45,945 nucleotides of DNA from Candidatus Thorarchaeota archaeon (lineage in GTDB: Archaea; Asgardarchaeota; Thorarchaeia; Thorarchaeales; Thorarchaeaceae): positions 1 to 45,945 of the forward strand of contig JAEOUN010000073.1 of assembly GCA_016839245.1 (NCBI GenBank). Direction: 5' to 3'. The translations under genes were made by a program, and so were the position numbers. How positions within the stretch are numbered: position 1 is the stretch's first letter; the number at the start of each line of letters is the position of its first letter. The notes beneath the pieces were generated by a model. That model was not told where the DNA came from. It did no database searches and worked only from the letters and a program-made list of their open reading frames with translations. Of the stretch, positions 18,143 to 34,639 are shown piece by piece.

Positions 18143-20201
18143 ATGGTGATACAAGTGCTTGATGTCTCAAAAGCAATGAAGGTCAAACTTTCGTCTGAGT
18201 TGCCTCCTGATCCAGTATTTGATCCACAGTATAGGCGAGCACCAGATCGTGGATTTAGTCTGAATGAGAATGAAACCATAATTGCATTAAAGAATGCTTT
18301 ACGCTACATTCCGCCAGACCATCATGAAAAACTCGCACCAGAGTTTCTTGATGAACTTCTATCCAGAGGTCGCATCTATGGCTACCGTTATCGTCCTCAG
18401 GGTGCGATTAAAGCAAAGCCTGTTAATGAATACAGGGGAGTCCTCGAGGCTCGAGCTATTCAGGTGATGATTGATAATAATCTGGATTTTGATGTTGCAC
18501 TCTATCCTTACGAACTGGTCACTTACGGAGCTTCATTCTAGATTTCCTAGATGAGTCGTTTAAAGTGGCCAAGTCTGTCAGAACTGGATGCAATATCAGC
18601 TCATTAAGAAGTATCTTGAAACTATGACTGAAGAACAGACCTTGGTAGTAAGTTCTGGCCATCCTGTTGGTCTATTCCCATCAAAACGAAATGCACCTCG
18701 TGTGATATCGACTAATGGTCTCATGGTCGGTATGTTTGATACACCGGAAGGTTTTCACCATGTTACACAGATGGGTGTCGCGAATTACGCACAAATGACT
18801 GCAGGCGGATGGATGTACATTGGACCACAGGGGATTGTCCATGGAACCTTCATTACTCTCCTAAATGCTGGTAGACTCTATCTTGGACTACCTGAGAATC
18901 AAGATCTTCGCGGGAAGGTGTTCCTGACCTCTGGATTGGGTGGCATGAGTGGAGCACAGGCAAAAGCAGTCGAGATAGCTGGCGGTATTGGAGTCATTGC
19001 TGAAGTTGACAAGAGTAGGATTGACACCCGACATGAGCAAGGTTGGCTGAGTAAATATTCATCTGATCTGAAAGAGATCTTTGAGTGGGTTGATGAATAT
19101 CGTAGGAAGAAAGAGCCTGTGTCAATTGGCTACTATGGAAATATTGTAAATCTCTGGGAATATGTGTATGATAACAATATCACTATCGAACTCTCCTCTG
19201 ACCAGACTTCATGTCACGCTGTCTATGATGGTGGTTACACTCCTCAAGGTGTGACCTTTGAAGAAGGTAGAGAATTACTCAAGGCAGATCGAGCTAGGTT
19301 CAACAAACTCGTAGATACGTCTCTTCGTCGGCAGTTCGAGCTTATAGAGGCAATGACAAAACGTGGTACATTCTTCTGGGACTACGGGAACTCCTTCATG
19401 AAGGCTGTCTTCGATGCTGGAGTAACGCGTATCGCACGCAATGGAAGGGATACCACTGAGGGATTCATCTTTCCGTCCTATGTAGAGGACATTATGGGTC
19501 CTATCTGTTTTGACTATGGTTATGGTCCTTTCCGCTGGGTATGTCTCAGTGGAAAACACGAGGATCTCATTGAGACCGATAGGGTAGCTATGTCAAAGAT
19601 AGACCCAACTCGAAGAGGGCAAGACCGTGACAACTATCACTGGATACGAGATGCAGAGAAGAATGCCTTAGTAGTGGGATCACAGGCACGAATTCTCTAT
19701 GCAGATGCTCAAGGGCGCGTGAATATCGCATTGTCATTCAACGAGCTGGTCAGAAATGGAAAAGTGGGTCCAATCATGCTGGGTCGAGACCATCATGACA
19801 CTGGCGGGACTGATTCTCCATTTCGTGAGACCGCAAACATATACGATGGCAGCAATATGATGAGTGATATGGCTCATCAATGTTGGTCTGGCAATGCTGC
19901 TCGTGGCATGACGATGTGTGTCCTTTCAAATGGTGGCGGCGTTGGAACTGGGAAAGCTATCAATGGTGGTTTTGGACTAGTCCTTGATGGATCGGAGCGG
20001 ATTGATGCAATCATCAAGTCTGCACTTGATTGGGATGTCATGGGCGGAGTTGCTCGACGTGCATGGGCTAGAAATGATCATGCCATAGAAACGGCAGCTG
20101 AATGGAATATTCGACTCAATGGAAAAGGTCAGATTTCACTCCCATATATTCCCGATGAACATCTTGTCGAGAAGTTGGTCAAGAAGAGACTTGGTAACTA
20201 A
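18143..20201 (+). CDS. hutU: urocanate hydratase, interrupted by a predicted 31-nt BHB intron
   Basis: HutU converts urocanate to imidazolonepropionate, the second step of histidine degradation, using NAD+. The predicted mRNA joins 18143-18530 to 18562-20201, giving 675 residues, close to the ~676 of the long urocanase type. Exon 1 encodes the N-terminal domain (PPDPVFDPQYRRAPDRGF ... ALYPYELVTYG). Exon 2 continues with GQVCQNWMQYQLIKKYLE, NAD-site motifs QMTAGGWMYIGPQGIVHG and GLGGMSGAQ, and SRDHHD-like GRDHHDTGGTDSPFRE near the active site. Without splicing, exon 1 stops at 18539-18541 and exon 2 has no start before ATG 18588, losing conserved residues. Its end overlaps the convergent endonuclease V gene by 4 bp. 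Confidence 0.9.
18531..18561 (+). other. predicted bulge-helix-bulge intron in hutU mRNA
   Basis: Seen in sequence: an outer helix of 9 pairs, 18516-18524 with 18563-18571 (one G-U), joins the two exons. A 3-nt bulge TTA (18560-18562) follows on the 3' strand. The central helix has 4 pairs, ACGG (18525-18528) with TCGT (18556-18559). A 3-nt bulge AGC (18529-18531) follows on the 5' strand. The inner helix pairs 18532-18541 with 18547-18555, with one bulged T and a 5-nt loop. Archaeal splicing endonuclease cuts after the second base of each bulge, here after 18530 and after 18561. Ligation gives the codons TAC GGA GAA AGT GGC CAA, that is YGESGQ, matching the urocanase family. The length of 31 nt shifts the frame, and the insert carries in-frame stops. 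Confidence 0.9.
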
Positions 20202-20827
20202 TCCATCTCTTCACGCAGTACTTCTCTTGACAATATATGTGCCCTTCGCAATGGTTCGGGATATCCATCCACACTAGAATTAGAAACAACTGTAACAGCG
20301 GTAGCTAGTGATATCTTATGTCCTATTGATACATAGACCGGCTTTTTTTCCTTGAGCCATAATACTTGTCCAATTATTTCATCCTCATGAATAATGTCCG
20401 CAGAATTTCCCAAACGAAAGCCAATAGTTCCAAGTAATAGTTTCTTTGCGACGCCAATAGTCTGAACATTCATTTTGACTCCAAGATATGAAGCGAGTCC
20501 AAACCTTCTTGGATGCAGTATTCCATTTCCATCTACTAATATTGTCCCTGAAGTCTTGAGAGTCTTTAGGAGTTCGATTAGAAATGGTCCTTCTCTGAGC
20601 TGGAAGAATCCTGGGATATAGTCTGATTCAATCTCTCTAACAACCGCTGTTGAAGATATGACCACCTTTTTTATGACATCAAGGGCTATTGCTACTCCTG
20701 CACCAAGATCCTCCGAATATGCGACATCTACACCAATAACTATCGGATACGATGAGGTAGATACATCCTCTCTTATGATAATCTTAGCAAGTTCTTCCTG
20801 TTCCTTTGCAAGTTTCTCTAGATCCAA
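20198..20827 (-). CDS. nfi: endonuclease V
   Basis: The 209-residue protein starts at TTG 20827. It cleaves DNA near deaminated bases such as inosine, or inosine-containing RNA. The catalytic acids are in place: D34 in IGVDVAY, E79 in FFQLREGP and D99 in LVDGNGILHPRRFG. The YIPGF wedge motif is at 70-74. It is convergent with hutU (4-bp overlap) and divergent from hutH. There is no functional link to histidine breakdown, so its placement looks incidental. Confidence 0.92.
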   Translation of the reverse strand: MDLEKLAKEQEELAKIIIREDVSTSSYPIVIGVDVAYSEDLGAGVAIALDVIKKVVISSTAVVREIESDYIPGFFQLREGPFLIELLKTLKTSGTILVDGNGILHPRRFGLASYLGVKMNVQTIGVAKKLLLGTIGFRLGNSADIIHEDEIIGQVLWLKEKKPVYVSIGHKISLATAVTVVSNSSVDGYPEPLRRAHILSREVLREEMD

Positions 20828-22476: not shown

Positions 22477-23751
22477 TTATGGTCCTAACCTTGTGTGAAC
22501 AACTTGTCCATTTGAGATTACTGTGTGCACTAAGTTTGCGCCAAATCGCCAAGACAGATATTCAGGATTAGGACAGTCAAGAACAAGAATATCAGCTTTC
22601 TTACCTACTTCAATGCTTCCAAGTTCTTCAGCTCTATCGATTGCGTGAGCTGCATTTATAGTGACTGCTGCTAGTGCCTCTCTCGGATACATCTTCATCC
22701 TGTAGCATGCTAATGCAATTGTAAAGAAAAGTGACTCATTGGCACAGTTTGGATTAAAATCCGTAGCTAGTGCTACTGGTAATCCCATGGTAATCATTTT
22801 TCGTGCATCAGCGTAGTTTGTGTTGAGACTAAAAGCAGTAGCAGGAAGAAGAGTTGCAATAGTACCCGTCTTTCTCATCGCTTCAAGTCCATCATCCGAT
22901 GCCATGAGTAAATGATCTGCAGAGACTGCTCTCATCTCAGCTGCGAGTTCAGCACCTCCAAGTTGTACAATCTCATCAGCATGAATCTTTAGTTTCAATC
23001 CTTTCGCTTTTGCTGCTCGTAGAATAGCTCGGGATTGTTCAATATCGAATACACCCTTTTCACAGAAGACATCACAGAATTCGGCCAGTCTACTATCTGC
23101 TACAGTAGGTATCATCTCGTTAATTATCAAATCTACATAGTTTTCTGGTCTTCCCTCGTATTCAGGAGGTATTGCATGAGCGCCGAGAAACGTAGACACA
23201 AGATTAGCAGGTATTTTACGTTGGATGTCTTCAACTGCTCTAAGCATCTTGAGCTCATTTTCAGTATCTAATCCATAACCACTCTTCGCTTCAATAGTTG
23301 TAGTACCATTGGCTAACATACTCTCAGCATAGGAGAATCCATTACTACTGAGCTCATCTAGTGATGCTTTCCTTGTTGATGTGAGCGTGTTGAGAATTCC
23401 TCCTCCTTCCTTGAGGATCTCAAGGTACGTCTTTCCCGCTAGTTTTAGAGCAAAATCCTTCTCACGAGATCCACCAAAAGTAAGATGGGTATGACTATCA
23501 ACAAATCCTGGTGTAGCCAACATTCCTGGAAATTCGATTAATGGTATATCCTGTTTATCATCTACTTCCGATAGGACTTCCTTAGTAGGTCCAACAGCAA
23601 TGATTGTTCCATCTTTAATTGCTATAGCACCATTCTCTATTATCGAGAGTTCCTTCAACTCATCTCCTCTCTTTGGTCTATCTGAGTGACCTTCAAGTGT
23701 GGCAAGCTGTCCAATATTCGTCAGGAGGATATCTGGTTTCATCTCAATCAC
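22477..23751 (-). CDS. hutI: imidazolonepropionase
   Basis: The 424-residue amidohydrolase starts at GTG 23751 or ATG 23742 (MKPDILLTN). It opens the imidazolone ring to formiminoglutamate, the third step of histidine degradation. Metal ligands are visible in FVDSHTHLTFGG, the substrate loop in FLGAHAIPPEY, and further ligands in LKIHADE and ATDFNPN. The length and order are typical. The final enzyme, a formiminoglutamase or formiminotransferase, is not in the window. Confidence 0.93.
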   Translation of the reverse strand: MIEMKPDILLTNIGQLATLEGHSDRPKRGDELKELSIIENGAIAIKDGTIIAVGPTKEVLSEVDDKQDIPLIEFPGMLATPGFVDSHTHLTFGGSREKDFALKLAGKTYLEILKEGGGILNTLTSTRKASLDELSSNGFSYAESMLANGTTTIEAKSGYGLDTENELKMLRAVEDIQRKIPANLVSTFLGAHAIPPEYEGRPENYVDLIINEMIPTVADSRLAEFCDVFCEKGVFDIEQSRAILRAAKAKGLKLKIHADEIVQLGGAELAAEMRAVSADHLLMASDDGLEAMRKTGTIATLLPATAFSLNTNYADARKMITMGLPVALATDFNPNCANESLFFTIALACYRMKMYPREALAAVTINAAHAIDRAEELGSIEVGKKADILVLDCPNPEYLSWRFGANLVHTVISNGQVVHTRLGP

Positions 23752-33499: not shown

Positions 33500-34639
33500 A
33501 TGGCTGAAGACGAGTTTCTTGGCGCAAAGCCGATTGTCATCGACAACGGCACAGGTTTGAGCAAGAACGGATACGCCGGCGAAGATCAGCCACGCAGTGT
33601 CTGGCCTACATTGATTGGATATCCCCGATATGAATCAATCATGACTGATGTTGATCACTACACACGTGACTACTACATTGGTGAAGAGGCTATCAACCTT
33701 CGTGGTGTCCTACGTCTGGTCTACCCAATCGCTCACGGAAAAATTGAAGACTGGGATGCCATCGAGAAGATATGGAGTTACACATTCTATAACGACTTGA
33801 AGGTTGATCCAAGTGAGAATCCAGTGCTTCTTACAGAGGCACCATTCAATCCCAGAGAGAACAGAGAGCGCATGGCCTCCGTCATGTTTGACAACTTCGG
33901 AGTGCCAGCAGTATATGTTGCCACGCAGGCAGTGCTCTCACTGTACGCATCTGGTCGAACAACTGGCTTGGTCATCGACTCTGGTGACGGTGTGACTCAC
34001 ATAGTACCAATCTATGAGGGTTTCTCAATCAATCACGCCATCAGAAGAATCGACTTGGCTGGAAGAGACATCACCGAGTACCTCCGCAGGCTACTTAGGC
34101 AGAGAGGTTACACTTTTGTCAGTGGTGCAGAGAAAGAGATTGTCCGAGATATCAAGGAGAAGCTATGTTATGTAGCTCTTGACCCCGAGCGGGAGAGGAC
34201 AGTCGCTGACAAGGCTGGAGTTGACAAACCCTATATGCTGCCTGATGGTGAAGTAATTACAATTGGTGCAGAGAGGTTCCAAGCTCCTGAGTTGTTCTTT
34301 AATCCAAGTGCCATAGGTCTTGATACTATTCCGCTCGATGAGCACATTGTCGAGTCAATCAAGGCCTGTGACGTTGACCTGCGACGTGACCTGTATGCCA
34401 ATGTTGTGTTGTCAGGCGGTTCAACTATGTTCCCAGGACTCAAGGAGAGGCTCCACAAGGAGATCACCGAACTAGTCCCAGAGAACATCGAAGTCCGAAT
34501 CATTGCTCCTCCTGAGAGACAGTACTCTGTCTGGATTGGTGGAAGCATTCTCGGCTCACTCAAGACATTCCAGAAGATGTGGGTGTCAAAGAAGGAGTTC
34601 GAAGAAGTCGGACCCGAAGTGATACACCGCTGTATCTAG
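33500..34639 (+). CDS. Asgard actin (lokiactin-type)
   Basis: The 379-residue protein starts at ATG 33500 after GAGGA. It aligns with eukaryotic actin across its length. It has phosphate loop 1 [53 protein letters not shown] (phosphate loop 2), [39 protein letters not shown] (adenosine loop), [16 protein letters not shown], and the ending [19 protein letters not shown]. It should bind ATP and form filaments. The DNase-loop region ([17 protein letters not shown]) differs from conventional actin. Codon use is richer in C-ending codons than in its neighbours, suggesting high expression. Prefoldin beta at 10305 could assist its folding. Confidence 0.97.

What the first reader, a model, noticed from the sequence alone, without database searches (positions are those of the whole stretch)
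18516..18571. A 31-nt bulge-helix-bulge intron splits the hutU (urocanase) gene
Seen in sequence: the urocanase frame is broken after YG by a 31-nt insert with stops, and resumes in another frame with GQVCQNW. The junction folds into a complete hBHBh' motif: a 9-bp exon-exon helix, 3-nt bulge TTA, 4-bp helix ACGG/TCGT, 3-nt bulge AGC, and an intron hairpin. Cutting at the canonical place in both bulges (after 18530 and after 18561) gives exactly YGESGQVCQNW, and a 675-residue product close to the ~676 of the long urocanase type. Established knowledge: archaeal EndA cuts BHB motifs in tRNA and rRNA precursors and in a few mRNAs, notably cbf5 of crenarchaea. Frame prediction and structure prediction agree to the base independently, so chance is unlikely. 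A BHB intron in a catabolic enzyme gene of an actin-bearing archaeon would be new as far as I know. It also means such genes would be annotated as two broken pieces.
Basis: partly seen in the sequence, partly recalled or inferred. Interest (0 to 1): 0.96.

Follow-up and report, generated by a model that had tools for sequence, protein, structure and literature searches.

The report
Tiny spliced introns in Asgard urocanase
A 31-base insert splits the urocanase (histidine breakdown) gene of an Asgard archaeon, folds into the shape that the tRNA-splicing enzyme recognises, and is likely cut out of the messenger RNA to restore the protein; related Asgard genomes carry similar inserts at this and at a second place in the same gene.

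Summary
hutU (18143-20201) is broken by 31 nt (18531-18561). The junction folds into a complete hBHBh' motif. Cutting between bulge bases 2 and 3 gives YGESGQVCQNW and a 675-residue urocanase; E follows TYG in 119 of 120 listed homologues. It is not a lone oddity. Among 227 genomes of the phylum (90 with an exon-1 match), four have an insert at the same codon and five have one at a second codon (NYG|Q, 29-30 nt), one of them a Lokiarchaeon. In all ten loci (window included) the BHB cut restores the conserved protein. Stems covary. Synonymous codons upstream of each insert pair exon to exon as well as any alternative can, and that wording is absent from the 115 (site 1) and 104 (site 2) distinct intact sequences compared. 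All nine intron-bearing genomes encode EndA and RtcB. Besides unconfirmed predictions, cbf5 of Crenarchaeota is the only archaeal coding gene with such introns in the papers I saw. No transcript has been seen: splicing is inferred. The scattered distribution suggests repeated gain (mobility) or frequent loss.

The parts
18143..18530 (+). hutU exon 1 (129 codons plus first base of codon 130)
   Evidence: Pfam Urocanase_N positions 1-43; homologues
18531..18561 (+). 31-nt BHB intron, phase 1; its in-frame TAG is at 18539-18541
   Evidence: sequence; CM hit 75.9 bits, though the window is one of the model's own sequences
18562..20201 (+). hutU exon 2 including stop
   Evidence: Pfam Urocanase_N 52-127, Urocanase, Urocanase_C on its ATG-to-stop part
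18516..18524 (+). 5' strand of the 9-bp exon-exon helix (TGGTCACTT)
18525..18528 (+). 5' strand of the 4-bp central helix (ACGG)
18529..18531 (+). 5' bulge AGC, predicted cut after 18530
18532..18555 (+). intron hairpin: arms 18532-18541 and 18547-18555, loop ATTTC 18542-18546
18556..18559 (+). 3' strand of the central helix (TCGT)
18560..18562 (+). 3' bulge TTA, predicted cut after 18561
18563..18571 (+). 3' strand of the exon-exon helix (AAGTGGCCA)
18792..18793 (+). empty second site (NYA C|AA ATG), where other Asgard hutU genes carry a 29-30-nt BHB intron
   Evidence: sequence; site-2 model matches the intron-less site at 18776-18802 with 22.9 bits
20930..22474 (+). hutH (histidine ammonia-lyase), unbroken neighbour
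   Evidence: Pfam Lyase_aromatic
22477..23751 (-). hutI (imidazolonepropionase), unbroken neighbour
   Evidence: Pfam Amidohydro_1 over the cut-off; a hutI-specific composite domain only below its cut-off

Best explanation
The 31 bases at 18531-18561 are most likely an archaeal bulge-helix-bulge intron in the hutU messenger, predicted to be cut out by the splicing endonuclease EndA and the exons then joined, probably by the ligase RtcB, to give a 675-residue urocanase. Shown from sequence: the insert, the BHB fold, the exact restoration of a conserved residue, homologous inserts with covarying stems in other Asgard genomes, and a second intron site in the same gene. Inferred: that EndA cuts between bases 2 and 3 of each bulge, that RtcB ligates, that the excised intron becomes a circle, and that the spliced mRNA is translated. 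Each intron splits one codon after its first base: E130 at site 1 and the Q of NYGQMTAG at site 2. These align with residues 50 and 127 of a urocanase of solved structure, 2fkn, which I recall (from no call) as NAD+-binding positions, so unspliced messenger would likely make no working enzyme.
For: BHB with exact frame restoration. E at that position in 119 of 120 listed homologues. Same-codon inserts in four and site-2 inserts in five of 227 genomes of the phylum, 90 of which have an exon-1 match. In silico splicing at the BHB cut restores ESGQ/ETGQ and QMTAG in 10 of 10 loci, window included, two of them cut by contig ends further down. Covariation: site 2 (5 sequences) 93.9% of cells paired, 11 cells with both sides changed against 4.4 in shuffles; site 1 (4 sequences) 87.5%, 7 against 2.6. 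Exon flanks: CTGGTCACTTACGGA in 4 of 4 distinct intron-bearing and 0 of 115 intact site-1 sequences; CTCGGCGTC in 5 of 5 and 0 of 104 at site 2. At site 1 none of 96 synonymous choices pairs better, and intact genes reach at most 6 of 9 pairs. Two intron-bearing genes (L111, L112) differ at dN 0.042, dS 0.43 and have the same 32-nt intron letter for letter. Nine of nine intron-bearing genomes have EndA and RtcB, eight of nine with two EndA-family genes. Of 120 listed of 1120 homologues of exon 1, by pattern 35 (window included) end just past site 1 and 34 just past site 2, nearly all with tails unlike the protein (one false hit removed by hand, P0171 with tail ERG is doubtful).
Against: No transcript or protein data; splicing is unproven. 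The motif alone is expected about once per 46-kb strand at this stringency. L111/L112 (32 nt) lack a canonical central helix (mismatches, or a bulged base), and the outermost central pair is not standard in 2 of 5 sequences at site 2 and 2 of 4 at site 1, so they would need an EndA of relaxed specificity. Alignments are small (4 and 5 sequences). At site 2 the exon-helix contrast is weaker: intact genes average 7.3 of 10 pairs, maximum 9. The window's own genome is not held, so its EndA could not be checked. The truncated database proteins are gene predictions whose DNA I mostly could not fetch.
Confidence: 0.9

Rival explanations
1. hutU is a decaying pseudogene and the insert is a lesion.
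For: The insert carries a stop and shifts the frame. Some relatives carry broken N-terminal hutU copies upstream.
Against: Exon 2 is open over its whole length. The intron-bearing pair L111/L112 has dN/dS about 0.1. The same codon is hit in separate branches of the tree. No second full-length copy was listed in the nine intron-bearing genomes. Stems covary.
Confidence: 0.04
2. Translational bypassing or frameshifting lets ribosomes hop over the insert without RNA splicing.
For: A hairpin sits in the gap, as in known bypass elements (recalled).
Against: In the window the triplet before the resumed frame (AGT at 18564) is TAA, no match to a take-off codon, so a hop would not give the conserved E (sequence). 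Insert lengths of 29, 30, 31 and 32 nt, and exon-exon pairing tuned by synonymous codons, are not expected of a hop.
Confidence: 0.03
3. Two separate functional proteins are made: 132 aa, and 537 aa from the ATG at 18588.
For: Both frames are open, and 18588 is an ATG.
Against: It would lose the stretch ESGQVCQNW, kept with few changes in the 120 listed homologues, and the break lies inside one Pfam domain (profile positions 1-43 and 52-127).
Confidence: 0.02
4. Assembly or sequencing error.
For: The window's source is not told and its genome is not held; the close relatives are metagenome assemblies.
Against: Homologous but diverged inserts at the same base in separate assemblies, with compensatory changes.
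Confidence: 0.01

Closest known systems
cbf5 pre-mRNA introns of Crenarchaeota (Yokobori et al. 2009, PMC2738675; passages seen)
   Same: Short BHB intron without an ORF (16 to 44 bp there, 29-32 nt here); splits a codon of a catalytic residue after its first base (there); cut predicted between bulge bases 2 and 3; heteromeric EndA invoked for unconventional motifs; lost in some lineages.
   Different: Other gene (a catabolic enzyme), other phylum, two sites in one gene, and in the window a canonical motif; there spliced cDNA was shown, here not.
BHB element in the 5' UTR of HVO_1309, Haloferax (PMC7714728; abstract, introduction and one discussion section read)
   Same: mRNA substrate of EndA, 46 nt removed.
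   Different: Untranslated region; the coding frame is not affected.
Asgard tRNA introns (PMC11291895, passages seen)
   Same: Same presumed machinery; 92% to 95% of tRNA genes in three complete Asgard genomes carry introns.
   Different: tRNA, not mRNA; the passages I saw speak of tRNA introns only.
Putative 12-bp introns in an archaeal virus (Peng et al., as cited in PMC2738675)
   Same: Short insertions into coding genes with possible mobility.
   Different: Splicing not shown; a virus genome; insertion mechanism unknown.

Membership tests
Archaeal BHB (EndA) pre-mRNA intron | hBHBh' motif: 4-bp central helix, two 3-nt bulges, flanking helices | tested here: met
   Window. Among relatives, L115 and L021 pass the same scan; L081 and L114 keep central helix and bulges but have imperfect intron stems; L113, L116, L118 mismatch the outermost central pair and L111/L112 are non-canonical
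Archaeal BHB (EndA) pre-mRNA intron | Cut between bulge bases 2 and 3 restores the reading frame and the conserved residue | tested here: met
   10 of 10 loci; E in 119 of 120 listed homologues
Archaeal BHB (EndA) pre-mRNA intron | Organism has the splicing endonuclease and a ligase | tested here: inconclusive
   Own genome not held; EndA in 12 of 12 and RtcB in 11 of 12 relatives searched, nine of nine intron-bearing ones with both
Archaeal BHB (EndA) pre-mRNA intron | Spliced mRNA and excised or circular intron observed | not testable with these tools
   No RNA data
cbf5 intron | Lies in the pseudouridine synthase gene cbf5 | tested here: not met
   The host gene is urocanase
Group I or group II intron | Conserved ribozyme fold | tested here: not met
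   No Rfam match in the window at gathering scores; 31 nt is too short
Translational bypass element | Matching take-off and landing codons | tested here: not met
   The triplet before the resumed frame is TAA; the product would lack E (sequence)

The most novel reading that the evidence does not exclude
hutU of Asgard archaea is a hot spot for a mobile kind of ultra-short BHB intron that repeatedly enters cofactor-binding codons, possibly by reverse splicing or by conversion that carries flanking exon wording along, crosses lineages (Thorarchaeia to Lokiarchaeia), and is tolerated because exon codons are tuned to fold the splice site. Messenger splicing by the tRNA enzyme would then be an ongoing, spreading process in the archaeal lineage closest to eukaryotes.
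Probability: 0.35. Interest if true: 0.92.

Novelty: new member of a known kind. Interest (0 to 1): 0.82.

Why it matters
A 2020 paper says that, besides its own 5' UTR case, only one BHB intron in an archaeal mRNA had been reported, in cbf5 of Crenarchaeota (PMC7714728); a 2009 paper mentions predicted but unconfirmed ones in other genes (PMC2738675). If spliced, this would be a second coding gene, in a different phylum and in ordinary metabolism, with two insertion sites and a natural series of filled, relaxed and empty sites in which to study gain, loss and exon co-adaptation. It also means that Asgard genes are being predicted as fragments, and that searches for conserved genes broken at one repeated codon could find more. 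It bears on messenger splicing by a protein enzyme in archaeal relatives of eukaryotes.

Tried and rejected
A de novo scan for BHB hits joining two coding frames (window and nine loci) was too permissive: many hits looked like adjacent overlapping genes, so I drew nothing from it. The 400 kb of G034 contig C11 trained its codon scores but was not itself scanned for split genes. Covariance models of the two introns over 227 genomes found only the hutU introns plus one weak match each: G169, which lies at the empty site 2 of hutU, and G104, outside hutU, whose sequence I printed but did not analyse. Those searches used strict filters. Over the window and G034 stretches (all 20 with the site-1 model, 10 of 20 with the site-2 model) nothing new appeared. 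The site-1 model does not find site-2 introns, so common descent of the two is not supported by that test. tRNA introns could not be shown: ARAGORN (400 kb of G034 and nine other loci) and Rfam (140 kb) found only tRNA-Sec. Rows dropped before counts: short frames in G189, G186 C128 and G159 end at contig ends and that in G168 runs into masked bases; 18 of 168 loci had no site-2 pattern match and identical rows were merged; four loci were too short for the tree and 156 proteins were merged to 120; P0184 was removed by hand from the site-1 list. One search had a letter-case fault and missed L021; one search replaces it.

Full report
Observation. The window's hutU reads from ATG 18143 to ..YG (18524-18529), meets a TAG at 18539-18541, and resumes in another frame with SGQVCQNW from 18564. 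Removing 18531-18561 gives one 675-residue frame with YGESGQVCQNW. Other registers of a 31-nt removal (+1 to +6) are also open but give A; E follows TYG in 119 of the 120 homologues listed (of 8000 scored). The minimum-energy fold of a 61-nt stretch is the complete motif: 9-bp exon-exon helix, ACGG/TCGT central helix, bulges AG|C and TT|A, and an intron hairpin with loop ATTTC. A motif of about this quality is expected roughly once per 46-kb strand, so its weight comes from lying exactly at the break, and from the homologues.

Source. The closest named homologues are Thorarchaeota; in a quick tree of 120 hutU proteins the window pairs with L033, named Thorarchaeota. The contig carries an actin gene at 33500-34639 and the hut neighbours hutH and hutI.

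Homologous inserts. With exon 1 alone as query, 120 of 1120 protein hits were listed. By pattern, 35 (window included, one false hit removed by hand, P0171 doubtful) end within a few residues of ELVTYG with tails such as VSD, VSY, VPD or ENY, and 34 end just after NYG of GVxNYGQMTAG; 30 of 120 matches end at residues 129-131 and 35 of 120 at 205-211 of the joined protein. In genomes, 90 of 227 of the phylum of G002 (a Thorarchaeota genome) have an exon-1 match. Site 1 is broken in G033, G045, G047 and G021; site 2 in G035, G040, G034, G005 and G166.

Architecture. Site-1 introns are 31 nt (window, L081, L113) and 32 nt (L111, L112); the three 31-nt ones share the stretch TAGATTTCCTA. Site-2 introns are 30 nt in four loci and 29 nt in L116. 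In each case a cut between bases 2 and 3 of the two bulges gives G|AR (E) or C|AR (Q), and the spliced frames of all ten loci carry ESGQ/ETGQ and QMTAG (L081 and L111 run into contig ends further down). The 29-, 31- and 32-nt inserts shift the frame and the four 30-nt ones carry an in-frame stop, so reading through is no option in these ten.

Structure tests. Pair counting for the stated structure: site 2 (5 sequences) 93.9% of cells paired, six pairs with changes on both sides (40 of 500 shuffles reach six), 11 such cells against a shuffled mean of 4.4 (0 of 500); site 1 (4 sequences) 87.5%, six pairs (4 of 500), 7 cells against 2.6 (0 of 500). The tool warns that related sequences can exceed shuffles without structure, and the structure was derived from these sequences; versions slid by 1 to 3 columns pair only 25-48% of cells. 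Weak spots: the outermost central pair is non-standard in 2 of 5 and 2 of 4 sequences, and L111/L112 have no canonical central helix.

Exon tuning. Intron-bearing genes share synonymous wording next to the insert that intact genes lack: CTGGTCACTTACGGA in 4 of 4 against 0 of 115 (site 1), CTCGGCGTC in 5 of 5 against 0 of 104 (site 2); the intact sets include bacterial homologues. At site 1 this wording gives 8-9 of 9 exon-exon pairs, unbeaten by any of 96 synonymous choices, while intact genes average 3.5 and reach at most 6. At site 2 it is likewise unbeaten in five of five, but intact genes already average 7.3 of 10. Against close intact relatives, third-position differences in the seven codons upstream are 4 to 6 of 7 in each of 11 (not independent) comparisons, above the gene-wide rates of 0.28-0.61, though only slightly for win-L002, L113-L016 and L114-L022. 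This fits selection for a foldable splice site, or transfer of the intron with its flanks; I cannot separate the two.

Constraint. L111 and L112 differ at dS 0.43, dN 0.042 (ratio about 0.1) yet have the same 32-nt intron; at their synonymous difference of 0.327 per site, 32 unchanged neutral sites would be expected about 3 times in a million (my arithmetic).

Machinery and controls. EndA-family genes: 12 of 12 genomes searched, two in 10 of 12; RtcB: 11 of 12. Two EndA genes would fit the heteromeric enzyme that accepts relaxed motifs in other archaea (PMC7714728 introduction; PMC2738675 passages); that the two Asgard genes form such an enzyme is inference. hutH over the same 227 genomes: the 42 listed rows from genomes of the class of G002 have no stop inside and open frames of 511-549 aa, except 467 in G033 where the match starts at residue 49; three listed rows of other genomes (G098, G089, G080) show one stop each and were not inspected, and the list was cut. 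The intron models found hutU introns and two weak matches.

Site choice. Both introns split one codon after its first base. By alignment to 2fkn these codons fall at residue 50 (second G of YGG) and residue 127 (Q of GQMTAG); that these bind NAD+ is recalled from annotation, not from a call. The cbf5 intron likewise splits the codon of the catalytic aspartate after its first base (PMC2738675).

Evolution. On the quick tree, site 1 needs at least 4 changes for its 5 carriers and site 2 at least 4 for its 5; intact genes are interleaved. Repeated gain, or an older intron with many losses, both fit.

Literature. Full-text searches of the held library: 'urocanate hydratase'+intron+archaea, 0 papers; Asgard+introns+'protein-coding genes'+BHB, 0. 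(listings; 6, 70 and 87 cut) show no title on BHB introns in Asgard coding genes. Most subscription journals and bioRxiv preprints are not held, so absence here is not proof.

Verdict. A real BHB intron system in a coding gene is the best explanation (0.9). What is missing is one transcript.

Noticed in passing
P0223: A 215-aa homologue has an in-frame 10-residue insert ADSRSPSFTV exactly at site 1 and ends just past site 2, as if a stop-less 30-nt intron at site 1 and an intron at site 2 lay in one gene.
   Followed up: no
P0153, P0180, P0181, P0187, P0196, P0198: Homologues that end at or near ELVT, a few bases before site 1, some with odd tails: perhaps introns in slightly different places, or contig ends.
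   Followed up: no
L112 3817-4373, L015 64-643, G046:C96:61-643, G021:C109:52721-52843: Broken extra copies of the hutU N-terminus near the full gene in several genomes of the class of G002.
   Followed up: partly
G022:C79, G037:C357, G038:C276 (L212, L211, L213): Three contigs start or end within hutU at residues 207-218, at or just after site 2; unexplained, perhaps assembly breaks caused by mixed intron states in the population.
   Followed up: partly
window 33500-34639: Actin-family gene (Pfam Actin, 440 bits), in keeping with an Asgard source.
   Followed up: yes
L154 12839-12925: Selenocysteine tRNA in the G034 genome; no other tRNA was found in the 400 kb given to ARAGORN, perhaps because intron-rich tRNAs are missed.
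   Followed up: partly
window 20198-20827, minus strand: Endonuclease V gene (Pfam) lies between hutU and hutH on the opposite strand.
   Followed up: no
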